Shown here: piece after piece, positions 16,248-52,130 of the stretch
How the letters are laid out: the number at the start of each line of letters is the position of its first letter
Numbering within the stretch: position 1 is the first letter of the stretch
Virus record (IMG/VR): IMGVR_UViG_3300033153_009453
Coordinates: 1 to 55,434 of that record
DNA length: 55,434 bases
DNA from: a virus
Reading direction: 5' to 3' (one strand)
Position numbers and translations under genes: made by a program
Notes under the pieces: generated by a model
What the model was told of the DNA's origin: nothing
Database searches by the model: none
What the model saw: the letters and a program-made list of their open reading frames with translations, nothing else

Positions 16248-16258
16248 ATAAATTATAT

Positions 16259-16343
16259 GCCACCTTAGTTCAGTGGTAGAACAAAAGTAAGCCAGCTTTG
16301 AGCTGGATACTTTCGGTCGCTGGTTCAAATCCAGCAGGTGGCA
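16259..16343 (+). tRNA. tRNA with enlarged anticodon arm, possibly tRNA-Gln(UUG)
   Basis: The acceptor (GCCACCT with AGGTGGC, discriminator A), D arm (GTTC-AGTGGTA-GAAC), 5-base variable loop (CGGTC) and T arm (GCTGG-TTCAAAT-CCAGC) are canonical. Between them the anticodon stem AAAGT/ACTTT (16284-16288, 16309-16313) closes 20 bases instead of 7. Those 20 bases contain an inner hairpin CCAG-CTTTGAG-CTGG. Read as an extended arm, the 7-base loop CTTTGAG gives anticodon UUG with U33 and A37. Removing 13 bases to restore a normal loop never leaves U at position 33, so a simple intron is less likely. CCA is not encoded. Identity is tentative. Confidence 0.75.
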
Positions 16344-16366
16344 ACATTTTAAATAAAGACAGTGAT

Positions 16367-18008: not shown

Positions 18009-18713
18009 ATGGTTTCTAAAAAAACAATTGAGATAATGGAGTTAATAATGGGAGTAATAGTAGTTTTATTCATTTTCACTCTAACAACAATGTTAGTTTT
18101 CTCAGTCCCCAAGGCTTCCGCCGAAGAAGTTAAGATTGATTATACTAATAAATGTATTCCTTTCTCTCTAGCTGGAGGAGAAATTCTAAGGTTAAGAACC
18201 AAGATTACAATATTAGGGGCTGAGAATTTAGTCCTTAGAGCAAGGTTAAAGTCTTTAGGGACTGTTAGTACCCAAAAGGTATTAAAGTCCGGTAGAGTGA
18301 CTAAAAAGGGGTATAGAGTAGATGATTACCGCCATGAGTATATTAACTATGCGTTCTCACTAGGTTTGAATGATAAAGTTATGTATAGAAGTTCAGGAAC
18401 TAATAGTGCCTCTAAGGAGTTCGTAGGGTTACTAGAAGCTGAGAATAGTGCTTGGAATATTAGAACAAGAAGTAATTCTAGTTATTGGAGACCAGCAGAT
18501 ACTATAGAATGATACTGGAGACCAGCAGGCACTTATTGGGACTTTGGATTTTGTCAAATAAGTAATTATTATCATCCTAGTAAAACTGAAAATAAGAGAT
18601 TTTATACAGATTGGAAATGGCAAATAGACCAATGTTATAAGCTATGGAGATGATGAACTAAGTTCTATTGAGCTAAGAATATATCTAGAACAATTTTAAG
18701 ATTTAACTTTTAA
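18009..18713 (+). CDS. Membrane-anchored lytic transglycosylase-like protein
   Basis: 234 residues. A transmembrane helix (residues about 13-35) is followed by a short coiled-coil-like segment (ILRLRTKITILGAENLVLRA) and a domain with the SLT/lysozyme pattern. The candidate catalytic Glu is in LLEAENSAWN (about 141-150), then DFGFCQIS (the GxxQI turn), and YTDWKWQIDQCYKLWRGG near the end. Two Cys may pair. A tandem duplication YWRPA-x5-YWRPA lies near residues 158-170. The enzyme would cleave peptidoglycan from the outer face of the membrane. Its place in the early/middle region, away from the lysis cassette, suggests cell-wall remodelling, superinfection control or timed weakening. Confidence 0.65.
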
Positions 18714-18719
18714 ATAAAT

Positions 18720-18926
18720 ATGAAAAAAATAATAATACTAGCTATATTAATAGCTACATTAACTAGTTGTTGAAAAGATTGTACATTCTATAATATGTCT
18801 AATGAAGACATAATTAAAGAAGTTAAAAAGTGTAAAGAAGCTGGAATGTGACATGAGTTTAATAAAGTCTCTTGACGGGGATTTTGTCCTAGACCTAAGG
18901 AGGTTATTTGTTCAGGTTATTTATAA
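18720..18926 (+). CDS. Small lipoprotein
   Basis: 68 residues with a type II signal: charged start MKK, hydrophobic core, lipobox LTSC at residues 14-17 followed by a TGA-encoded Gly. The mature part has four more Cys. It would be anchored to the outer face of the membrane. Phage lipoproteins often block entry of related phages, a role that fits but is not shown. Confidence 0.75.
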
Positions 18927-18944
18927 ATATAAAATATATTAAAT

Positions 18945-19274
18945 ATGGAAAAATGTAAAGCTTGTGAAGAGGCTGTTAAAAAGTACAACCTTGATAAAGA
19001 AAGAACACTTTGGTATTATAGTCTACCTAGAGATATGGAAAGATGAAGTGTTTGGAGTGAAAAAAGCTATGGAATTGAGGGTTTAGATATAAATTTTAGA
19101 GATAATAGACTACATTTATATCTTAAAAAAGTTAATAATACCTTGATGGAACAAGAATTAGGGTTTTGTAGAACAAGTATTGCTTGTAAAGTACAAGGGT
19201 TTTCTATAAAAGAAGAAGCTATTGAAGCTTATAATAAAGCCTTAAAAGAAGAATATGAAAGTAATTTACTTTAA
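18945..19274 (+). CDS. Protein with N-terminal CxxC
   Basis: 109 residues. It begins MEKCKACEEAVKKYN, and a second Cys pair (GFCRTSIACK) sits near residue 80, so a zinc site is possible. The C-terminus is a helical acidic segment. Function unknown. It leads into the amidoligase cluster. Confidence 0.65.
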
Positions 19275-19289
19275 TTAAAAAGCTAAAAT

Positions 19290-19841
19290 ATGAAAAGAAA
19301 ATGGGAACTACTTGCAAAGATTAAACCGTTAGTCAATAGGGGATGTTGTATTCATACTGAGTATAAGGTATGAAACGAATACGCTTATGAATTAATAGGT
19401 AATAATACTATTACCTTAACCATTCGTTGAGAATGGAATAACCCTAAATGAGGGGTTAATAAAATTAATAATAATATTATTAAAAGAACATTTAATAATA
19501 TTATTAAGGAAACTAATGCAGAAAAGGTTTCACCTCCAATAACCTTGGAAATTTGATATGAAGATAGCCTAAGGCTTCTCTATCATCATTATCCTTTTGG
19601 GGAAACTAATAATTCTAATTCAGTATTAGTTAACTGACAGAATAGAATAATAGCCATTCAATGGAATGGATTAAAGAATACTTCCTTAGTTCATTCTAAT
19701 GAGGTTAGAAATATACCTAATTATATTGTATTGAATAATTCTAAAAAAGTAGAATGAAAGTTCTATTTGGAGGATTTAGATATTATAACTAAGTGTTTGA
19801 GAGATTTATTTAATAATAATAAAGAATATGGGAAAATTTAG
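19290..19841 (+). CDS. Unknown protein coupled to the first amidoligase
   Basis: 183 residues, Asn/Ile-rich. N-terminus MKRKWELLAKIKPLVNRGCC; middle LEIGYEDSLRLLYHHYPFGE; C-terminal helical tail. It ends in TAG and overlaps the next gene by 14 bases, so the two are probably translated together. The Y-E-D and HHYPF residues could be functional but match no family I know. By context it is a candidate partner or substrate-binding component of the amidoligase pathway. Confidence 0.65.
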
Positions 19842-20676
19842 GGATTACCAAGAGGATTTAATATTTAATAAATCTAAGGATTGCTCTTTTGCAATAGAGT
19901 TAGAAATAGGATTAACCTTTTACGAAAAAGAAATAGAGTGACTACATTCTAATAGAATAAGGGAAAGTTCTAATATTATGGAACTAAGAGACCTTCACCT
20001 TAGAGACAAGAAAACAATTTCTAAGGTTTATAAGAAATGTCAAGAATATTATAAAGATAAGTTTCCATTATGAGCTAACGGTCATAATAGTTGAGGAGTA
20101 CATTTTCATGTATTTTGAGATTTTGATATATTTGAAGATACTAGTATTAATAAATTCAATTCACTTTTAATTAATTGCCCATTTTTTATGAAGCTTTATA
20201 ATTGAAGTTTTTATAATAGACAAAATAGGATGCACAGATTTGAAGATTATAGAGATGTAGAAGATAACTCTAAGGGATTATGTGTGACTTGTAATAGTGT
20301 TGGCTCTTTTGAATTTAGATGTAATAATGTTATTGATGGGAGATTATTAGGGTATTACCAATGAGTACTATTGGCAGCAAAAAAGAAAATTAAATTTGAA
20401 AAAGTTTCCAATAAAATTGAAACCTACTCAAAAAGATGAGATACTAAAGGATATTGACAACGGAATGAGGGTAATCATTCTATACTTAAATGAACTAAAT
20501 ATGAGGATTGAGTGACTGATATACCAATTGAAGATTGTGAGGGTATAAAAGTCTCTCAAGAAGATAAAGGTATAATTCTAAGGAATGTGGAAATTATCGT
20601 TTCCCTTCTAAAAGAAGAGGGATTAACTAATTCTTCTAAGGCTTTCGGGGAATATTTGGATGAATTTAATTTTTAA
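19828..20676 (+). CDS. Amidoligase-like enzyme 1 (COOH-NH2 ligase, GS-like fold)
   Basis: 282 residues. Motifs in the expected order for the glutamine-synthetase-like amidoligase family: an N-terminal acidic strand FAIELEIGL (about 22-30), a central His motif GGVHFHVFG (about 89-97) and a later Glu/Arg strand SFEFRCNN (about 157-164). These supply metal, ATP and phosphate contacts. Members join a carboxylate to an amine with ATP. Neighbours include a second paralogue, a cyclotransferase and an amidotransferase, the association described for this family by comparative genomics. Assignment rests on motifs and context. Substrate unknown. Confidence 0.7.
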
Positions 20677-20686
20677 TTATAAATAA

Positions 20687-21082
20687 ATGGGTAAAATAAT
20701 TTGAGTATATGGTACTCTAAAGAGAAGTGAAGGTAACTATTCTGTAATGGAAAGGGCAAAAGGTGAGTATATAGGAGATGACTATATTAGATTTGACAAA
20801 GTCTGAGATTGCGGCTTCCCTAAAGTTAAACTTTCAGCGGAAAGTAATAAATATTTACTTGTAGAATTGTTTGAAGTTCCAGAAATAGGAGTTGAATGAC
20901 CCTTAGATGGATTAGAAGGATATAATCCTAATTCTTCTTACAATCATTACAATAGAGTTAAGACAGTAACTCTAAAATGAAAAGAAATAGAAGTATATGA
21001 AATAGCCTGAGATACAGAAGATTGTTGTGAGAATTACTTTTCTCATATTGATTGAGAGAGACTATTTTATAATCGGAAATAG
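20687..21082 (+). CDS. Gamma-glutamylcyclotransferase-like protein (AIG2/GGCT fold)
   Basis: 131 residues. VYGTLKRSEGN at the N-terminus (YGTL at 8-11, the substrate-binding loop), a FPKV strand, and the catalytic acid in LDGLEGY (E77), followed by the usual aromatic NHYNRVKTV and an EVYEIAG strand. The enzymes cyclise gamma-glutamyl amines to 5-oxoproline and a free amine. It starts 10 bases after amidoligase 1. In such clusters it is thought to process or remove gamma-glutamyl adducts made by the amidoligase. TGA encodes glycines at IIGVYG and KGKE. Confidence 0.85.
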
Positions 21083-21164
21083 TTCAATATACTATTTTAT
21101 ATTGGCTTTTATATAATTGAGAAAAAAGATTATGTAGGAGTATTATTTATTAATTATATATATT

Positions 21165-22217
21165 ATTTGCTGAATTGCCATCGTTAGATGAAAAAAGAGG
21201 CTTGCAGAAGCTTTAACTAACCAAGTAGATAGATGATTAGAATGAATGGGGGTAATAACCCCTAAGTGTTATTATAGAGCTTTATATAAGAAGCTTAAAA
21301 ATTATCTTTCTTATATAAAGAATTGTATTGAAGAAGATAGTATTTATATACTCCACCATAGAAAAGCCTCTGTAGGAGCTATATGTTTAGATAATGTCCA
21401 CCCTTTTGAGGGGGAGAGCTTTATTTTAGTTCAAAATTGAACTATTAGAAACTTTTATAAAGCATATAAAAATATTTATTGAAAGGAAACTGATACAGAA
21501 ACACTTCTTTCTTACTTGGAAGAAAAAGCTTCCTGTTTGAATGATATACCAATCATTCTCAAAGAGCTTTCAGAAACCTATAAGGAAGATTTTTGAATAA
21601 TTATAATTAAATCTAGAATTGAGGATAAAATATTATTCTATACTGATGGTAGTAGAGAAAGTTATATAGATATAAATACCACCAATAATACTATAAATGG
21701 TATTTATAACTATAATACCCATTCAGGGTATGAAAATACAGGACATATAGTGCTTTCCTATAAGGGGGTAATCTTAGAAAATACCTTTAAAAGTTTTAAT
21801 AAGAAAACATTTTATTTATATACTTCTTGAATACAGAAGAGGAAGAATGCAATAACTACTAGAACCTATTATGGGGAAGGTTGGAAGTGGGATTATCTCT
21901 CACGAAGTTATAAGTATACTCCCCCTAAAAAGGACAAGAGTAAAGTAGATGAATATGAAAAAGAAAAGGAAAAGATTAGAAACGAAGTTTCATACTTATT
22001 TGAAGAGTATAAGGCTTCTGACATGTATTGGATTATATGGGATTTTCTTGAGAATGTATGGGAGACGAAGCTCCCAACCGAGATTAATGCAAAACGGGCT
22101 TTTGTAGAATGGTATTATAATTTTAAAATTATGGATGAATATAAAAAATACCAATGTATTATGGAAAGAATAGAATGAGAGTTCTATGAAGCTTTCAAAA
22201 TTATCTTTAATAAATAA
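21165..22217 (+). CDS. Class II glutamine amidotransferase
   Basis: 350 residues starting, by family rule, with the N-terminal nucleophile Cys: ATT-TGC-TGA-ATT reads (M)CGIAIVRG. The start codon would be ATT at 21165. No ATG, GTG or TTG lies upstream in frame before the TAG at 21155 region (21135). Glutaminase-domain motifs are HHRKASVGA (about 63-71), NVHPFEG (about 76-82) and LVQNGTIRNF (about 87-96, Gly = TGA), aligning with HTRWATHG, AHPH and VHNGIIEN of GlmS/PurF-type domains. It releases ammonia from glutamine. No synthase domain follows. Instead there is a unique C-terminal half with a charged coiled segment. It likely feeds ammonia to the neighbouring amidoligases or acts as an amide-exchange enzyme. 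Confidence 0.85.
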
Positions 22218-22228
22218 TAAAATAAAAT

Positions 22229-23605
22229 ATGAAAGTATGAATAGAAGTAGAGCTTCATTCTAACGGTGAGAGTTTTTATGATATAAAAGACTGTCTATGA
22301 TTGAGCTTTAATTCATTTAATGAAGAATGAATTAAAATGAGTGAAGAATATTATAGAAGTACTATTGAGTTTAATTTCATGCCTATAGGATTAGATAAAA
22401 AGGAATTTAATAGAATTTCTGATTATTTAAAAGATAAAAGAGAAAGATTTAATTTGAAATTAAATTGAGGTAGACCTCAATTCACCTGAACTCATCTCCA
22501 TCTATTTGAAACCTCTTCTTTTAGAAGAAATAGATTATTAAAGTGAGTATTAAGCTTTATTAAAGATAATTTTGATGGATTAAGTAAAGGTTCTAAAGAG
22601 AGATTATTACTAGCTCACCAACTCTGGGGATTTTATGACCATAAGGTCACTAATGGAGAATGGATTAATATTATTAGGGGAAATGGATTTAATATTACTA
22701 ATTATAGTTTAAGCTATGATAAACCTAAATATAGTCCAGTAATTAAATCACCAGCCATAGAAGGATGAAAACCTTTATCAACTGAGATTAGATGTATTCC
22801 TAATGAATATATCTTTAATGGTAAAGCTTATGAGCTTTGTAGGGAAATTGAAAATGGGGAGTTATATAGGAGAGAACCCTTGGAGGCTATTGACTTTTTT
22901 AAATTCCTAATAAAGGATTTAAGATGACAAGAGGTGGTAATTCCTAGTTTATTTCATAATTCTAATGTTGACTTACTTGACCATGAGGGAATTATACGAT
23001 TAATTAACCAACATTGAAGTGAAGCTGTATTTGGCTATTCATCAATATGTAATTGATGGAATTTAAGAAATGTTTGCAGTAGATTTAACTCATTCAAAGA
23101 AGAGTTAAAGAAATTTAGATTAATTAATCAAAGATTAATCTTTAAAAATATTAATCTACTACTTAATCTTTTTAATGAACATAGCTTCAATAAAGCTAAG
23201 TTTGGTGAAATTAAAGATTATATTAATCAATTTGATAATGATGAATTTAGTAATAATTATTCTTGAAGAAGTTCTGAGTTAGTAAGAATACCTAGATTTT
23301 CAACAGAAATGATTATTGACTTTATTAAAGATATTAATAGTGAAGAAAAAGTTACAATAATAAATAACTTACTAATTTCACTTGAATGAAGAATTATATG
23401 AAATGACTTAAGGAGATTATGTGAATATGAAAATTCATTAACAGTAGAAGGAGATACTGGTGAAGTAGTTGGATTAATTCCAAACACCTTCTCTGATACG
23501 TTAGTTGAGCTAAGAAATAACTGCCTTATACCTAATAATTCATTTACGGGACAATTCTCTTACATGAGAGATTATAGTAATATTAACATTAATGACGATG
23601 AATAA
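22229..23605 (+). CDS. Amidoligase-like enzyme 2 (COOH-NH2 ligase, GS-like fold)
   Basis: 458 residues. Clearer family signature than paralogue 1: VGIEVELHS (residues 3-11), GTHLHLFETS (about 86-95, first Gly TGA) and STEIRCIPNEY (about 184-194). About 200 further C-terminal residues, rich in Asn, Leu and Ile, are not part of the core and may bind the acceptor. It starts 11 bases after the amidotransferase and overlaps the RNA ligase by 8 bases, so the whole run is one operon. Predicted to form an amide or isopeptide bond with ATP. Target unknown. Confidence 0.78.
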
Positions 23606-24650
23606 ATTTAAAAGATATAATAGGATATATTCATTATTAGATAATGAGTGAAAACCTAGAGAAGAAACTGATTGAATATTGAAAGGAATTTGTAGTATTC
23701 AAGAAAAAATAGATTGATGTAATCTTTCAGTTTGGATGGAAGACTGAGAGATTAGAGTTTGAAGTAGAAGTCAAGAGGTGACTAAGGATGGCTTTAGATG
23801 AGCTGTAGACTATATTACTACCCATACAGGCATAAAAGCTCTCCTAGGGGGCTTAGAATGAGATATAAGACTATATGGTGAATGGTTAGTTCCTCATACT
23901 ATTACTAATTATTTACCAGAAGCATATAATCATTTTTACTTATTTGATATAGAGCAAGATGGAGAATTATTATCAACCTTAGAAGTTGATAATTTAGCTT
24001 CTAAATATTGAATTAAGAAACCTCATCTTATAGGGTTAATTAATAATCCTACTATTAAAGAGCTTACCTTCTTAATAGGGAAGACTTGGCTTAAATGAGA
24101 TAAGAAAGACTGAGGGGAAGGAATAGTAATTAAAAACTTAGATTTTACTAATAAATTCTGAGATACTTGCTACGCTAAAATAGTTGGTGATGACTTTAAA
24201 GAAAGTAATGCTATTGTCTTTGGTAATCATAAAAAATGAGATATTGAGATGGGGCTTGCTACTAACTTTTGTAATTTAGCAAGAGTAAAGAAAATTATAA
24301 ATAAAGTAGAGGAAACTCTAGATAGAAAAATATTAAAAACTGATATTAATCAAATAATTTGAAGAGTTCAGTATGATATTATTACCGAAGAAATCTGGGA
24401 AATACAAAAGAAATGAATAATTAGCTTTAGGCAATTAAAGTCTCTTATAGGGAGGAGGGCAGCTAGAATAGCTATTGATATTATTGAGGGGAATAAGGAG
24501 AGTGTTGCATTTAGTAATGCTCCCCAATTAAATAAGAAAGAAGAAGTTGTAGTGATTAATGAAGATTTAGATTATGCTACATATAAGGCTTTTTTAGATG
24601 AAACACAACCTATTTTACCTTTTAAAAAATTACCAGAATGAACAAAATAA
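23598..24650 (+). CDS. RNA ligase (nucleotidyltransferase superfamily)
   Basis: 350 residues. Motif I SIQEKIDGCNLSVW with the adenylated Lys near residue 36 and an essential Gly encoded by TGA. Then VGSRSQEV, IRLYGEWL (motif IIIa), GEGIVIKN (motif IV) and CYAKIVGDDFKE (motif V). The motif set resembles Rnl2-type ligases more than DNA ligases, and the C-terminal helical domain also fits. It seals 3'-OH and 5'-phosphate RNA ends. It overlaps the kinase/phosphatase gene by 13 bases, forming a complete RNA-repair pair as in T4. Confidence 0.87.
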
Positions 24651-25516
24651 TAGCTTTGAGAGGCATTCCTTGCAGCTGAAAGAGTAGCTTCGCCCAAATA
24701 AAGAAAAAAAAGGATTGAGCGAAAATATTTAATAAAGACGCTATAAGAGACAGACTTGGAATTACCCCCGAAACTTGGAGTAAGTCCGCCGAAAAGAGAG
24801 TTATAAGTGAAGAGAGAAAATGAGTAGAGAAGGCTATGGGGGAATGAAGAGAGCTTATAGTGGTTGACAATACTCATTTATGAGCCTTTAATACCCATCT
24901 TTTCTTTTATAAGGGACTAGCTAAAACCTATAATTATGAGTTTGAAGTTAAAGACTTTTACTGTAGTAGAGATGAAGCTATAGAGAGAGATAGCCTTAGA
25001 GAGAGGAAGGTAGGAGTTAAGGTTATAGATAAGATGATTAAACTCCATGGTAATTGAGGTAATGTTCCAGTATTCGCCTCTTACAGAGAACAAACGGAAG
25101 ATTTACTAAATGCTTATATATTTGACATTGACTGTACATTAGCCCAGATGGATAATAATAGAAGCCCATACGATTACTCTAAGGTTTATGAAGATAAGCC
25201 TAACCAGTATATTATTAATATAGCTAAAGACTTAGCTTTCACTAATAATATCATCGTAGTGAGTTGAAGAGAGGATAGCTGTAGGGGTGATACCATTAGA
25301 TGGTTAAAAGCCTTCTGAGTGCCTTATAGTGACCTTTATATGAGGAAGGCTTGAGATACTAGGAAGGATAGTATAGTTAAGAAGGAAATATTTGAGAATG
25401 AGATAGAGGGGAAGTATAATATATGAGGAGTATTTGACGATAGAGACCAAGTTTGCAAAATGTGGAGGTTAGAATTAAAGTTGCCCTGTCTTCAAGTTTT
25501 TTACGGGTCTTTCTAG
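24638..25516 (+). CDS. Polynucleotide kinase / 3'-phosphatase
   Basis: 292 residues with the T4 PseT arrangement. The N-terminal kinase has P-loop GIPCSGKSS (residues 9-17, Gly TGA) and a VVDNTHL motif. The C-terminal HAD phosphatase has AYIFDIDCTLAQM (about 158-170) with the two catalytic Asp, VVSGREDSCR, and GVFDDRDQV near the end. It converts cleaved RNA ends to ligatable ones by removing 2',3'-phosphate and phosphorylating the 5' end. In T4 this pair repairs tRNA cut by the host anticodon nuclease. Presence here suggests the same threat in the host. Confidence 0.92.
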
Positions 25517-32683: not shown

Positions 32684-33331
32684 ATGGAAAAGCTTTTAAT
32701 TATATGAGACCTCCATTGACTAAATATCTGGAAAGACCTTGTTAAGAAATATGAATTTGACAAGGTTATTTTTTTAGGAGACTATGTTGATAGTTTTGGC
32801 GTTCCAGATGATGAGATGGTGAGTAATCTACAAGAGATTATTAAATACAAGAAAGAGAATATAGAGAATACTATCCTTTTATGGGGAAACCATGACTTAC
32901 AATATATTGACAAGAAGTTTAGATGTAGTTGATATAGACATAGAATTGCAAAGACTTTGTATAATATATATAATCCAAATAAGAACCTATTTAAGGTAGT
33001 CCATTTGGAATGAGATTATGTATTTTCACATGCAGGCTTTACAGATTGATGGATAAATGAGAACTTCCTAGCTTGATGGTTTGAAGAAGAATTAAATGCT
33101 ATTCCTGATTGTTTAAGTCAAGTATGATTTGAAAGATGAGGTTGTACTAAATTTGGTAGCCCTGTTTGGGCTTGAAGAGAAGAAACTGAGAAGGATGAGT
33201 TTGTATTAGGGAGTTTAATACAAGTTGTATGACATACAGCTGTTCCCCATATAATTGACAAGTGACATATAATATATTGTGATAATTTAGAGTTTGGAAA
33301 TTGAGTACCTTTAATTCTTAATGTTGAGTAA
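32684..33331 (+). CDS. Calcineurin-like metallophosphoesterase
   Basis: 215 residues. Metal-binding motifs in order: LLIIGDLHGL (residues 3-12, both Gly are TGA), VIFLGDYVDSF (about 28-38), LLWGNHDLQ (about 66-74), VFSHAGF (about 119-125) and VVGHTAVPH (about 186-194). This is the phage lambda protein phosphatase / ApaH-like family pattern. Possible substrates are phosphoproteins, cyclic nucleotides or diadenosine polyphosphates. The sequence does not decide which. Both motif-I glycines being TGA strongly supports recoding. Confidence 0.88.
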
Positions 33332-34624: not shown

Positions 34625-35761
34625 ATGAAATTAGATATAAACAAGTTACACCCTATTCCTAAGAAAATTGGAATAAGTACATTCTGATTAGCTGTATACA
34701 GTAAACCTAATAAAGAAATAGAGGAATTTATTAATTTTCATAACCTTAAAGTAGAAGAGAGTGGAAAATATACAAATATTCTAATTTGAGAAGATTGAAA
34801 CATTTTTAACTTATTCAAGCAACCAGAACAATTTGCTTATATGGATGGATTTTCCCCAAATATAAATAAAAGTCTTCATGCTTGACATTTAGCTAACTTA
34901 GTTACAGCTAAAGCATTTCAAAAGCTGTGAATTACAGAGAAAACGATTGCATTAATGGGGGACACTTTACAATGAACTAATGAAAAATACTTAGAAGAAT
35001 ATTTTAATTTAATACATAAGTTTAAATATAAACTTCACAATACCTACTTTGCTTCAAACATGGTTTATAATTGAAGGCTTCAAGCTTGAAATGATAAATA
35101 TGAATGAACTAAAGTATTTAATATAGATTGAAATAAGATTGTATGAACTAAGAAAGATGGAAGTAGTTCTTATTTTTATCAGGATGCTGCCTTGGCAGAA
35201 TTATTAAACAAGAAAACCTTATATCTAACAGGTAGTGAACAAAATCAACACTTTGAATTATTAGGTAAAATATTTAATATAAAACATATATGATTATGAT
35301 TACTTAAACTTTCGGGCAAGAAAATGTCAAGTAGAGTTTGAAATGTTATTATGGCTAAAGATTTAGTTAAGACAGAATTGGATTATAATATCTTTGCAGG
35401 GCATATTCTTAAAAGAAACCCTAAGACAGAAAAGATTATTAATCTTGATGAACTTAATAATCCAACTTATAGCCCTTGATTATATATAAGCTATACAATG
35501 GCTAGATTGTATTCTGCAGGATGTGAAGATGAGAAATGATGTTCAGCTAGGCTAGATTATGCTTATTTAAAATCTAAGTGTAATTTAAATCCATCCATTC
35601 TATTTAACGAGTTATTTAGTTATTGTGTTTCAATCAATTCCCTATATGAAAAGAAAAGAATTAAATGAAATGCTGATAATTTAATATTGTTTTCTGATAT
35701 GTTAGGTAGCTTAACTACACAATGTGAAAGATTGGGATTATTTAAAACTAAAAAGGTATAA
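34625..35761 (+). CDS. Truncated arginyl-tRNA synthetase-like protein
   Basis: 378 residues against about 550-600 for ArgRS. The class I signature is in FSPNINKSLHAGHLANL (about 75-91; PNxxKxxHxGHL is the ArgRS form of HIGH). Next come KKDGSSSYFYQDAAL, KTLYLTGSEQNQHFELLG (the ArgRS VGxEQxxHF block), IGLGLLKLSGKKMSSRVGN (KMSKS loop, about 226-244) and LYISYTMARLYSAG, start of the helical domain. The N-terminal Add-1 domain is missing, and only about 80 residues remain of the anticodon-binding domain. It could charge tRNA without reading the anticodon, act on a tRNA-like RNA or use arginyl-adenylate for another purpose. It starts 2 bases after the nuclease stop. Confidence 0.85.
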
Positions 35762-39280: not shown

Positions 39281-41065
39281 ATGTTTGTAAAATTAACAAA
39301 AGACCAAATAAAGAAAAAAAAAGAGTTTATAGAGAACTATAAAACTAAAAACAATCCTGCAACTCTATCAACATTAGATGCAAATGCAAATGTAGCTCAT
39401 AAAAATATAGCCACACTTGAAGCTGAAATCAATAAAGATGTTAATATTCAAATTAATAGAGCAATTGTAAGTGATAAAATAACTGAGATGTTCGGCGAAG
39501 AGTTAGGAAGTGAATATGTGAGGCAAATAGAAGACCATGAGATATATGTCCATGATGAGACAAGCTTAAAGCCTTATTGTGTTAGCGTAAGTATGTACCC
39601 ATTGTTAACGCATTGAATGACTACATTATGATGAGAAAGTAAAGCTCCTAAGAATATATACAGCTTCGCAGGTAGCTTTGTAAACCTAGTATTCGCTATA
39701 GCTAGTCAATTTGCTTGAGCTGTAGCAACTGTAGAGTTTTTAATGTACTTTGACCATTTTGCTAGAAAGCAATGGGGAGAAGGTTATACTAAGAATATAA
39801 CACCTGAGCTTCATAAAGAGCTTACTCAACTATTCCAGCATGTAGTATACTCAATAAATCAACCAGCTGCCGCAAGAGGGTATCAATCCGTCTTTTTTAA
39901 CATAAGTATATTTGATAAGAATTACTTTACTTCTTTATTCGGAGACTTTGTGTTTCCAGATTGAGATATTCCTAAATGGTCTAGTCTTGACGGACTACAG
40001 AAAGTGTTTATGGAATGGTTCAATGAAGAGAGGAGTAAAGCTGTTCTAACATTTCCTGTAATTACAGCTGCAATGTTGACAGAGAATAATGAAGTGAAAG
40101 ATAAGGACTTTGCTGATTTTATAAGTAAGGAAATGAGTGAGGGTAATTCCTTCTTTGTATATCAATCAGATAGTGTTGACAGCCTCTCAGCGTGCTGCAG
40201 GCTCAAGTCTACCATTACTGACAATACATTTAGTTATTCCCTATGAGCTTGATGAGTTAGTACTTGAAGTATTAATGTTATAACTATTAACTTTAATAGA
40301 TTAATTCAGAAATGAATTGATTTAAAGGAGCAAATAGACAGAATACATAAATATCAACTGTCTTACTTAGAAGTGATTAAGGATTATAAGAGAGCTTGAC
40401 TATTACCTGTATATGATGCTGGTTATATAAGTTTAAGTAAGCAATTTCTAACCATCTGAATTAATTGAATGGTTGAAGCTGCTGAAAGTTTAGGATTAGA
40501 AGCCTCTAATAACGACGAATATAAGGCTTGGGTTGCTACCCAGCTAAAAGTTATTTACGATGCAAATAAGGCTATTAAAGCATCATCTGGAGTGATGTTT
40601 AATACAGAGTTTGTTCCAGCTGAGAACTTATGAGTTAAGAATAGTAAATGGGACAAGAAGGATTGATTAAAGGCTATAAGAGATTGTTATAACTCTTATT
40701 TTTATAAAGTAGAAGATGAAGAGACAAGTATGATTGATAAATTTTCCCTCCATTGAAAAGATATGATTGAATACTTAGATTGATGAAGTGCTCTCCATTT
40801 AAACTTAGATGAATTATTAACTAAAGAGAATGCTTTGAAGTTACTTAATTTATGAGCTAAATCAGGTTGTAATTACTTTACATTTAATGTAAGAAGTACA
40901 ATATGTAATGGCTGTGGGTATATAAACAAAGAAACTAAGCAATTCTGTACTAAGTGTGGTTCTATGGATATAGACTATGGTACAAGAGTTATAGGGTATT
41001 TAAAGAGAGTTTCAGCTTTTTCAGAAGCTAGACAAACCGAAGCCCATATAAGATTTTATAATTAA
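39281..41065 (+). CDS. nrdD: Anaerobic (class III) ribonucleotide reductase
   Basis: 594 residues. YVHDETSLKPYCVSV, the active-site SLSACCRLKS, SLHLNLDELLT, a C-terminal zinc ribbon CNGCGYINKETKQFCTKCGS (two CxxC) and the glycyl-radical site RVIGYLKRVSAFSEAR near residue 572. The N-terminal ATP-cone regulator is missing, as in several phage enzymes, so allosteric control is likely reduced. It makes deoxynucleoside triphosphates without oxygen, implying an anaerobic host. TGA occurs at many internal glycines, including the sequence after Tyr-Ser-Leu. Confidence 0.94.
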
Positions 41066-46126: not shown

Positions 46127-48532
46127 TTATAAAGCATCTAAAGCACTGTAATCTCCCTCTTCTTCCTCTTCTTCTTTTTCAGCCTTCTTAGCTCTTTCAG
46201 CTATCTCGTCTCCTATTATAGCTTTTATAGTTTCAACCCCAGCCTTCTTGTCAGGGTATTTTTTGAAATATCTAAAATATTCTTCTCTTACGTTTGATGG
46301 ATTTATTTTGTCCATCACTTTTGATAATTCTTTAGTACCTTCTATGTCCTTCTCTTCTCTTGCTTTCTCTTTATTCTTTTTATCTGCAAACTCTTTTACA
46401 TTTTTAGTTGGACGCTCCCCTTTAAGGACACTATCCAACATACTTAATAATTGACTACTTGATGTTAAAGCTCTATTTCAAGCAACTCATTTATAAGTAC
46501 TTTCATTACCTGCATCTTTTGGTAGACTTGCCCATATTCCGCTTATTCTCTTTTGGAATTGTTGAGGTGTAATCTTTCAGCTCTTAAAGTCATTAAAGCT
46601 TGAACCCATTAGCTTCATCGCCATTTTATCTTGTAATTCAGGTGTAAACTTTTCATTTCAAGTTAATCCCATATCTCTAATTAAGCCTCTTAATGTTCAA
46701 CTAACTATTTGATATTTCCCCATTGCTCATCCTATATAATTCTCTCCATCAGATGATAAGTAAAGTCTACTTTGTTGAAACTTTTGTAGTTCCTTTAGGG
46801 TCATATTAGTAATCTTTGTTTTAGTTTGACTTCAAGCTCAAAATAGAGCTTCATAGTTTCAATTGGTTCATTCAGCACTTGAAATAAAATCTAGTAACTC
46901 ACTAGTTCAACCACTTCATGCAGTATAATCTTGGTTTTCAACATCAAACTGTCTTGCTTCTTCTCTAGCCTTAGCTTGGTCAAGTGCATATTCTGCTCCG
47001 AATTTAGCTTTGTCAAATGCAAACTTCCTTTCCTCTAAGGAAACAGCACTTTGTCTTGCTTTGTATTCAGGTGTTTCACTTAGGACTTGCTTTGTAGCAA
47101 TAGCTGTAGCCTCTTCTAGAGTGCTTCAACCTTCCATTAATCTGTGGACATTACCGTTTATTTCTGCTCTAGTCTCTTCCGATGTAATATAACCTTCCCC
47201 CATCATTTTAGATACATTAGCTGAAACGGATTTCGCTATTGAACTTTTCTTAATTGAAGTTAAATCAATTAAGTTTAATCAAGCCTTTCTTGCTAAAGTA
47301 TCTAATTCAACATCATTCATTTCAAATAATGCTCAGCTAGTTATTTTATCATTTATATTCTCTTTTGCTAAACCTTGGTCTTTTTCAATTTGGTTTTGTA
47401 TGTCTATTTGATATTTATATCATCTATCTTGAATTTTAATCATATCATCTATATGTTGGCGTTCTAAGTCTCCAACTTCACTTCTATAATCCTTTAATAT
47501 CCCATCTATTGCTTCCTCCTTCTCTTGAGTACTTAATAGTAAACTCTTAGTAGTATCTTGTATTCTTTTTTCTGCTTGTTCATCTAAATCATCTAACTTA
47601 TCAGAGTAAGTATTTATTGTTTGATTGATTAATCAAGAATATTGCAGATTAGCTTTCTCTAATTCTATACCTACCTTAGATATTTCCACTCATGTAAAAG
47701 CTTCATTATAACTCATCTTAGCTTTTATTTGAGCTATAGCAGCTATTCAGTCAGTTGCTATTTGTTGAGATTGGTTTATAATTCAAGAACTAAAACCTAA
47801 TCATAACTTTTGATAAGCCCAAGCTGATTGTTGTCTTTCTATTTCTATTGCAGCCTCTGCTTCTATAATTGAGTTCTCATTTTGTATTCTCTGGTACTCT
47901 TGTGAGGCTTCTAATTTCTCTCTATCAGCCTCAGCTAACCTCATTGATAAGTCTTTCTCTTTCTGTAATCTTTCAACCTCTCAAGCTTTTTCATCTTCTA
48001 ATCTAACCCTCCTTTCATCTTCTAATAAAGATAGTTTTTCATCTTGTTTCGTTAATAAATCTTGTAATTCTTTTGCATGGGTCTCTGTTCTTTCTATATC
48101 AGTTTCTTTAGCTGTTTCCAAATCAGATATTTTAGTTTCTTTTAATTCTTCCAACTTCTGTCAAGCTGCTGTATTTTGTGCTAATATTTGTTCCGCCGTT
48201 CATTTAACGTCTCAAGGTTCAATTGTAGGAGTTGAAGGTGCATCAACTGTTCCCGTAGGCGTTGTAGTGTCTTCTCCAACTAAAGAAGAAGGAGTAACGG
48301 GGGTATCGGCGACCTTTAATCATGTTCAAGTTGCTGCTATTTCCGCTGCATCATTCCTACTTCCAGCTGTTTCTTTTATATCTGGGGTTAATTTAAATCA
48401 TTTTCCTACTACCTTACGGGTACGTTGAACTGGTTTTACTGTCGCTGGTTTTGGCGGTAATACTTTATTTGTATCTTTCCCAGCTCACGGAATAGTTGCA
48501 GTTACTTTCTTTTTTCCTCTTACTACTACCAT
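46127..48532 (-). CDS. Virion protein with long coiled coil and lysozyme-like domain
   Basis: 801 residues. After a Pro/Thr-rich start, residues about 130-400 form a long Glu/Lys/Gln coiled coil (ESDLETAKETDIERTETHAK-type heptads). Residues about 530-690 carry a lysozyme-type domain: LLDFISSAEGTNGNYEALF with candidate catalytic Glu near 551, then GGAMGKYQIVSGTLRGLIRD (GxxQI-type turn) and FTPELQDKMAMKLM, as in lambda-R/transglycosylase folds. The C-terminal 100 residues are acidic/basic mixed, ending in a Glu run. Likely ejected with DNA to open the peptidoglycan, the role of T7 gp16. Confidence 0.78.
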
Positions 48533-51554: not shown

Positions 51555-52130
51555 TTATCTTTTATTTTCTATTACTTCTCTAGCTCTCGCTATTTCAATT
51601 AACTCTTTAGTTTCTTGTTCTGTAAGAGGATTATTTCCTTCGTGAGAATTAAATATTGGCTCAATTCAAGCTTGTTTTAAAGCTCTCTCCATTATTCAAG
51701 AATATTTACTTTGTTCCCCTTGTTTAGTCTTTGCTTTGTCTGTAGTTCCTTCTTCTTTATAAGGTATTCAGTTATCTTGAAAGTGTGGTAAATCCTTTCA
51801 CCGTAAATCAAAACCCCAAACAATTCAATATTTGGCTGCTATATTAGCTATTTTAGTCCACTCTTTTATATTACTTGGATATAGTTCCTTTCACCTAAAG
51901 GCTATATCGATTGCCTTTCTTGTCTTATGGTAAGAGTTTAATGTCCAAGTAACCTTATTTCACTTCCTAGTTCTTCATTGTCCATATAAATATATTTGCC
52001 TTTCTTGGCTTCTATATGTTTCAGTAATGAATACTTCCTTTCAGGCTTCCTTAATAAATAACTCTACTTTCCTTTTAAAAGAGGGTGTAAGCTCATTAAT
52101 ATCTCGGCAAGGTGTTTTTATGTTAGTCAT
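51555..52130 (-). CDS. Endolysin, L-Ala-D-Glu / D-Ala-D-Ala peptidase (M15 family)
   Basis: 191 residues. The VanY/M15 zinc motifs are TETYRSQERQIYLYGQGR (about 36-53), SYHKTRKAIDIAF with zinc ligands H68 and D75, and LPHFQ with H116. Several glycines (YGQGR, GIVWG, LRGKD) come from TGA. The catalytic domain fills residues 1-125. Residues 125-191 are a charged helical tail that may bind the wall. It cuts peptide cross-links to release progeny. It is in a cassette with the holin-like genes. Confidence 0.9.

What the first reader, a model, noticed from the sequence alone, without database searches (positions are those of the whole stretch)
18945..23605. Phage-borne amidoligase / GATase II / cyclotransferase pathway
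Two GS-like amidoligase homologues (19828, 22229), a GGCT-fold cyclotransferase (20687) and a stand-alone class II amidotransferase (21165) form one tight operon, with an unknown protein (19290) overlapping the first. Known: comparative genomics linked these families as pathways that conjugate amines or amino acids to carboxylates of peptides or metabolites. Two paralogous ligases plus a removal-type enzyme in a lytic phage of a reduced host suggests modification of a host protein, peptidoglycan stem peptide, or a poly-amino-acid tag. This is the best candidate for an undescribed system here.
Basis: partly seen in the sequence, partly recalled or inferred. Interest (0 to 1): 0.88.

Follow-up and report, generated by a model that had tools for sequence, protein, structure and literature searches.

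The report
Phage amidoligase module, known kind
A virus of a bacterium that reads the stop codon TGA as glycine carries a very diverged, slimmed-down version of a known set of phage genes that builds and trims amide bonds, thought to change the host cell wall; the kind of system is already described, but this host type and this reduced composition are unusual.

Summary
Read with code 25, window 18945-23605 is a tight cistron series. It encodes a GGCT-fold protein (Pfam GGACT 2.6e-5), a class II glutamine amidotransferase (GATase_6 4.1e-8) and two GS-like amidoligase candidates. No Pfam, PHROG or NCBIfam model finds the ligases. However, both keep the E-x-E / H-x-H / E-x-R motifs, rank first and second of 56 window ORFs against an Amidoligase_2 profile, and the second gives weak glutamine-synthetase/YbdK fold matches. 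The claim 'undescribed system' does not hold: this is the published phiEco32/LUZ24/RIO-1 'peptidoglycan modification module' (Iyer 2009; Hardies 2013). The closest phage relatives of the GGCT and GATase are carriers of that module, and adjacent gene pairs are conserved. What differs: extreme divergence, a code-25 phage, no recognisable ATP-grasp or COOH-NH2 ligase, and a GATase apparently starting at ATT. One other viral contig (L032) has the same two-amidoligase, ATP-grasp-free layout. Most likely mechanism (inferred): the GATase frees ammonia from glutamine, the amidoligases use it or an amino acid to amidate carboxylates, probably on peptidoglycan stem peptides, and the GGCT trims gamma-glutamyl products. 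The target was not tested here and I found no published test.

The parts
19290..19841 (+). 183 aa protein of unknown family, overlapping lig1 by 14 nt; positional counterpart of the 160-205 aa unknown protein next to Amidoligase_2 in known modules
   Evidence: position compared with LUZ24 gp17, phiEco32 gp85, RIO-1_12, TC6_050, T4S1 ORF15. No sequence similarity detected, so counterpart by position only
19828..20676 (+). lig1: GS-like amidoligase, Amidoligase_2-type (282 aa); motifs AIELEIG, GGVHFHV, GSFEFR
   Evidence: E24, E26, D55, L58, R59, H92, H94, R131, G159, E162, F163, R164 invariant with known module amidoligases; rank 1 of 56; AF2 model low confidence, best BFVD matches amidoligases but not significant
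20687..21082 (+). GGCT/GGACT (AIG2/YtfP-like) gamma-glutamyl cyclotransferase-fold protein, 131 aa, acid residue E77 in LEGY kept
   Evidence: (hhalign 98.7%, 4.5e-16)
21165..22217 (+). stand-alone class II glutamine amidotransferase, 350 aa, ATT start directly before Cys2 (ATT TGC TGA = M-C-G)
   Evidence: (hhalign 95.8%, 6.9e-9)
22229..23605 (+). lig2: GS-like amidoligase core (residues 1 to about 215; motifs GIEVELH, GTHLHLF, STEIR) plus about 240 aa C-terminal extension of unknown fold
   Evidence: rank 2 of 56; BFVD: phage amidoligases; PDB: YbdK and glutamine synthetases on top, E 0.05-0.35
18945..19274 (+). 109 aa protein of unknown family at the head of the cistron series; membership in the module not shown
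23592..24650 (+). RNA ligase cistron overlapping lig2 by 14 nt; probably a separate RNA-repair function
   Evidence: (PF09414 6.2e-21)
24638..25516 (+). polynucleotide kinase/phosphatase cistron overlapping the RNA ligase by 13 nt; probably a separate RNA-repair function
   Evidence: (HAD_PNKP 9.2e-46)

Best explanation
A diverged, reduced member of the phage amidoligase module known from phiEco32, LUZ24 and RIO-1 (the 'peptidoglycan modification module'). Proposed working: the class II GATase hydrolyses glutamine and supplies ammonia; lig1 and lig2 use ATP to activate carboxylates as acyl-phosphates and join ammonia or an amino acid/amine to them; the GGCT-fold protein removes gamma-glutamyl (or similar) amide products as the trimming or reversal arm. 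Most likely substrate: carboxylates of peptidoglycan stem peptides or precursors of the code-25 host, altering the envelope against rival phages or wall enzymes. Shown (sequence): gene set, active-site residues, operon, membership by relatives and gene pairs. Inferred: ammonia transfer between GATase and ligases, direction of the GGCT, the substrate and the benefit.
For: The nearest GATase relatives are in RIO-1, TC6/PA11, Pecta and T4S1, and the nearest GGCT relatives in phiEco32-like phages, TacPo2 and PJNS034; the modules were seen directly in loci L001-L009. Motifs and profile rank put both ligases in the Amidoligase_2 group. PDB fold matches of the lig2 core are led by YbdK and glutamine synthetases. 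Gene pairs GGCT-GATase-ligase and unknown(160-205 aa)-amidoligase recur as in RIO-1/T4S1. Of 39 viral loci fetched by GGCT alone, 23 carry the module GATase. Host wall exists for the target: the phage has an M15/VanY peptidase, and a code-25 CPR bacterium encodes peptidoglycan synthesis (PMC8080830). Published prediction of wall modification: PMC5498523, PMC11945000, PMC10580990. Precedent for glutamine-dependent amidation of wall peptides: MurT/GatD (PMC3267633) and AsnB (PMC8554201).
Against: No library model recognises the ligases and no close relative was found. AF2 models are weak (pLDDT 43 and 53) and were built on alignments with amidoligases, so their fold matches are not fully independent. 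ATP-grasp and COOH-NH2 ligase, usual in the module, are not recognisable. The GATase needs an ATT start. The peptidoglycan target is a prediction in the literature too; I found no experiment.
Confidence: 0.6

Rival explanations
1. Same enzymes, different target: the ligases conjugate amines or amino acids to a host or phage protein, or make a small gamma-glutamyl metabolite, rather than acting on the cell wall.
For: Amidoligases as a class act on proteins, metabolites and wall peptides (Iyer 2009, cited). Mycobacteriophage Marvin's copies were read as secondary-metabolite enzymes. GGCT-fold enzymes classically act on gamma-glutamyl amines and small peptides (family knowledge). No wall-synthesis gene lies in the operon.
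Against: In related phages the published reading is wall modification. Nothing in the operon points to a protein substrate or an exported product.
Confidence: 0.25
2. The operon belongs to nucleic-acid repair or modification: with the overlapping RNA ligase and PNKP genes, the amidoligases would modify tRNA or DNA.
For: RNA ligase and PNKP overlap lig2 and each other by 14 and 13 nt. L010 has an RNA ligase gene between a GATase and a COOH-NH2 ligase.
Against: Among the loci fetched, a similar RNA ligase turned up only in L015, where no other module gene beyond the GGCT was detected; the modules of LUZ24, phiEco32, RIO-1, TC6 and T4S1 show no annotated RNA ligase beside them. RNA ligase plus PNKP is a known stand-alone tRNA repair pair of phages (general knowledge).
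Confidence: 0.08
3. The ligases are decayed or not amidoligases, and only the GGCT and GATase are functional remnants.
For: No family match; AF2 models weak; GATase lacks a usual start codon.
Against: Frames of 282 and 458 codons stay open; all motif residues are kept in both, and glycines at functional motifs are TGA-coded, which fits use of the frames in code 25; both rank top of the window.
Confidence: 0.07

Closest known systems
phiEco32 / LUZ24 / RIO-1 'peptidoglycan modification module' (Iyer et al. 2009; Hardies et al. 2013)
   Same: Two GS-like ligases, class II GATase, GGCT/AIG2 protein and an unknown 160-205 aa protein as one cistron series; gene pairs GGCT-GATase-ligase and unknown-amidoligase as in RIO-1 and T4S1; primase/helicase shortly downstream
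   Different: No recognisable ATP-grasp; second ligase carries the Amidoligase_2-like motif, not the GGHxHxG COOH-NH2 form; GATase shorter (350 vs 419-676 aa); RNA ligase and PNKP follow; code 25; ligases far diverged
Viral contig L032 (IMGVR_UViG_3300026382_000017)
   Same: Order amidoligase - GATase/GGCT - second diverged amidoligase, no ATP-grasp or COOH-NH2 ligase detected
   Different: GATase and GGCT fused in one 450 aa protein, table 11, zinc-ribbon-like repeats before the first amidoligase; no detectable sequence kinship of the ligases beyond the motifs
Bacterial wall amidation enzymes MurT/GatD and AsnB/LtsA
   Same: Glutamine-derived ammonia put on wall-peptide carboxylates (PMC3267633; PMC8554201)
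   Different: Other ligase folds; GatD is a class I type GATase (own knowledge); comparison is by function, not by sequence

Membership tests
phiEco32-type phage amidoligase (peptidoglycan modification) module | GGCT/AIG2-like protein of the module family | tested here: met
   hhalign 98.7%, E 4.5e-16 against module GGCTs; tblastn best hits are module phages
phiEco32-type phage amidoligase (peptidoglycan modification) module | Class II GATase of the module family with N-terminal Cys | tested here: met
   hhalign 95.8%, E 6.9e-9; Cys2, R66, N91-G92, D110 conserved; start codon ATT is inferred
phiEco32-type phage amidoligase (peptidoglycan modification) module | Amidoligase_2-type GS-like ligase | tested here: met
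   lig1: motif, alignment and rank 1 of 56; below any library cut-off
phiEco32-type phage amidoligase (peptidoglycan modification) module | COOH-NH2 ligase type 2 (PF14395) | tested here: inconclusive
   lig2 occupies the place after GATase as in RIO-1, but no PF14395 hit, ranks 3rd of 56 against that profile without significance and has the Amidoligase_2-like motif
phiEco32-type phage amidoligase (peptidoglycan modification) module | ATP-grasp ligase | tested here: not met
   No Pfam or profile hit in any window ORF above background; present in 20 of the 23 GATase-bearing loci among L010-L048. Loci with the set but without it exist, e.g. L032
phiEco32-type phage amidoligase (peptidoglycan modification) module | Activity on peptidoglycan | not testable with these tools
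   A prediction even for the type phages as far as the papers read show
Amidoligase_2 / GS-like fold | E-x-E, H-x-H, E-x-R residues on strands of a GS-like sheet | tested here: met
   Motifs in order in both proteins (1-2 per 50,000 shuffles); strands at motif positions in both models
Amidoligase_2 / GS-like fold | Three-dimensional GS-like fold | tested here: inconclusive
   lig2 core: YbdK and glutamine synthetases lead PDB matches at E 0.05-0.35; model pLDDT 53 and not independent of the alignment rows

The most novel reading that the evidence does not exclude
A distinct ATP-grasp-free subtype of the amidoligase pathway (amidoligase - GGCT/GATase - amidoligase), shared by this code-25 phage and contig L032, making a different product from the phiEco32 type, possibly a wall modification specific to reduced CPR hosts.
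Probability: 0.25. Interest if true: 0.55.

Novelty: new variant of a known kind. Interest (0 to 1): 0.4.

Why it matters
The module is widespread in phages, yet in the papers read its product and purpose are only predicted. A minimal version, with one ammonia source, two ligases and one removal enzyme, narrows which parts are essential. Its presence in a phage that uses code 25 extends the module to phages of the Absconditabacteria/Gracilibacteria type of host, which have small genomes but, in the one case read, encode peptidoglycan synthesis.

Tried and rejected
Library searches for the ligases (Pfam, PHROGs, NCBIfam, PDB sequences): none. tblastn of both ligases in phages: none. Single-protein scans of viral contigs with lig2, lig1, PNKP, primase and GATase, and of genome contigs with lig2: no relatives. 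GATase alignment too diverse to scan with. 183 aa protein compared with the unknown module protein and ATP-grasp: no signal. Full-length lig2 alignments (A4, A5) misplaced the E-x-R motif, so the core alone was used. GST matches of the GATase in PDB (E 0.0012) rejected: low-scoring, in a stretch inconsistent with the GATase motifs. IF-6 match of the lig2 C-terminus (E 0.02-0.08) not followed. Search for host genomes through NrdD reached mostly Bacteroidota, no code-25 genome.
Full report
What is there. The window is a virus record of 55,434 bases. ORFs of 100 aa or more cover 79% of it if TGA is sense and 13.5% under table 11, so code 25 is the right reading. Between 18945 and 23605 on the plus strand lie six cistrons, followed without a gap by an RNA ligase and a polynucleotide kinase/phosphatase gene. 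Glycines at functional motifs are coded by TGA: the Gly after the catalytic Cys and the Asn-Gly of the amidotransferase, Gly4 and the Gly before the H-x-H of lig2. That is a direct sign that these frames are used with TGA as glycine.

The GGCT and the amidotransferase are sound. The 131 aa protein matches GGACT (2.6e-5) and phrog_2520 (4.7e-12), and a profile of known module GGCTs at E 4.5e-16; the Y-G, F-P and LEGY motifs with its acid residue are kept. The amidotransferase matches GATase_6 (4.1e-8) and the module GATases at E 6.9e-9; Cys2, R66, N91-G92 and D110 are kept. Its reading frame has no ATG, GTG or TTG between the upstream stop and the Cys; the codon before the Cys is ATT. The next ATG (21246) would delete the Cys, so I infer an ATT start; an assembly error in an ATG cannot be excluded.

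The ligases needed more work because no model finds them. The ordered motif E-x-E ... H-x-H ... E-x-R occurs in only two of the 56 window ORFs of 120 aa or more, exactly these two, and in 2 and 1 of 50,000 shuffles of their own sequences; among 616 ORFs of related loci it marks 30, most of them recognised amidoligases. Against a profile of 26 amidoligase cores they rank first and second of the 56 window ORFs, aligned over almost the whole profile (hhalign E 0.0014 and 0.0079). Alignments place the motif residues together. AlphaFold models are weak (pLDDT 43 and 53), but the lig2 core finds YbdK and glutamine synthetases as its leading PDB matches (E 0.05 to 0.35) and phage amidoligases in BFVD. 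The alignments given to AlphaFold contained amidoligases, so this is support, not proof. The C-terminal 240 residues of lig2 remain unexplained.

What it is. Searching phage genomes with the GATase and the GGCT returned carriers of one known gene set: RIO-1, TC6/PA11, T4S1, Pecta, phiEco32-like phages, TacPo2, PJNS034. Their loci show the set directly: COOH-NH2 ligase, an unknown 160-205 aa protein, Amidoligase_2, class II GATase, ATP-grasp and GGCT, in varying order and often just before the primase/helicase. Papers describe it as a peptidoglycan modification cassette that may block superinfection, citing Iyer et al. 2009 and Hardies et al. 2013 (PMC5498523, PMC11945000, PMC10580990); the gene table of UFV-P2 lists the parts (PMC3890496). 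The 2009 paper itself was not held, so its content is taken from the papers citing it and from my own knowledge. Two gene arrangements of the window recur there: GGCT-GATase-ligase (RIO-1) and unknown protein overlapping an amidoligase (LUZ24, T4S1). The 183 aa protein is thus the positional counterpart of the unknown module protein, but I found no sequence similarity.

How it differs. Contig L032 has the same reduced layout, amidoligase - GATase/GGCT fusion - diverged amidoligase, without ATP-grasp. This may be a subtype or two independent losses.

How it most likely works. From family chemistry: the GATase frees ammonia, GS-like ligases form acyl-phosphates with ATP and make amides, the GGCT-fold protein cleaves gamma-glutamyl amides. 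The likeliest target is the wall stem peptide: published for the relatives, precedented by MurT/GatD and AsnB (PMC3267633, PMC8554201), and compatible with a host that has a wall, since this phage encodes an M15/VanY peptidase and the code-25 bacterium Vampirococcus encodes peptidoglycan synthesis (PMC8080830). The target step is inference; a protein or metabolite target remains open. The RNA ligase and PNKP that follow are more likely a separate RNA-repair pair, because the reference modules read here do not have them beside the set.

How sure. Membership in the known module kind: about 0.85. Peptidoglycan as the target given membership: about 0.6 to 0.7. The 0.6 given for the best explanation covers the statement as a whole.

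Verdict. Observation confirmed, interpretation partly supported, system of a known kind in a reduced and highly diverged form.

Noticed in passing
16258-16345: tRNA-like gene that ARAGORN could not assign; by eye an anticodon loop CTTTGAG (Gln, UUG) with an extra AAAGTA/TACTTT pairing that lengthens the anticodon arm.
   Followed up: partly
39281-41065: Anaerobic ribonucleotide reductase NrdD is 61-66% identical to Capnocytophaga and other Flavobacteriaceae enzymes, pointing to transfer across phyla.
   Followed up: partly
34625-35761: 378 aa protein with a class I (Arg-type) tRNA synthetase catalytic-domain match (PF00750, 1.4e-6).
   Followed up: no
18009-18926: Directly upstream of the cistron series: a protein with a signal-like N-terminus and a lysozyme-like look (GFCQIS, by eye only) and a small lipoprotein-like protein.
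   Followed up: no
51555-52130: M15/VanY-type peptidase (PF13539, 1.1e-7), probably an endolysin or tail lysin; the same strand also holds an 801 aa protein with a PHROG endolysin match (46127-48532).
   Followed up: no
32684-33331: Calcineurin-like phosphoesterase (PF00149, 5.2e-13) with a match to part of a phage RNA ligase family (phrog_8238), possibly part of an RNA-repair set with 23592-25516.
   Followed up: no
L121, L122: Two short viral contigs with terminase 90% and 73% identical to the window's: close kin of this phage exist, but these contigs of under 10 kb do not show the module.
   Followed up: partly
L010:705-5867: 416 kb phage contig with a class II GATase, an RNA ligase and a COOH-NH2 ligase as near neighbours, and a GGCT 39% identical to the window's.
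   Followed up: partly
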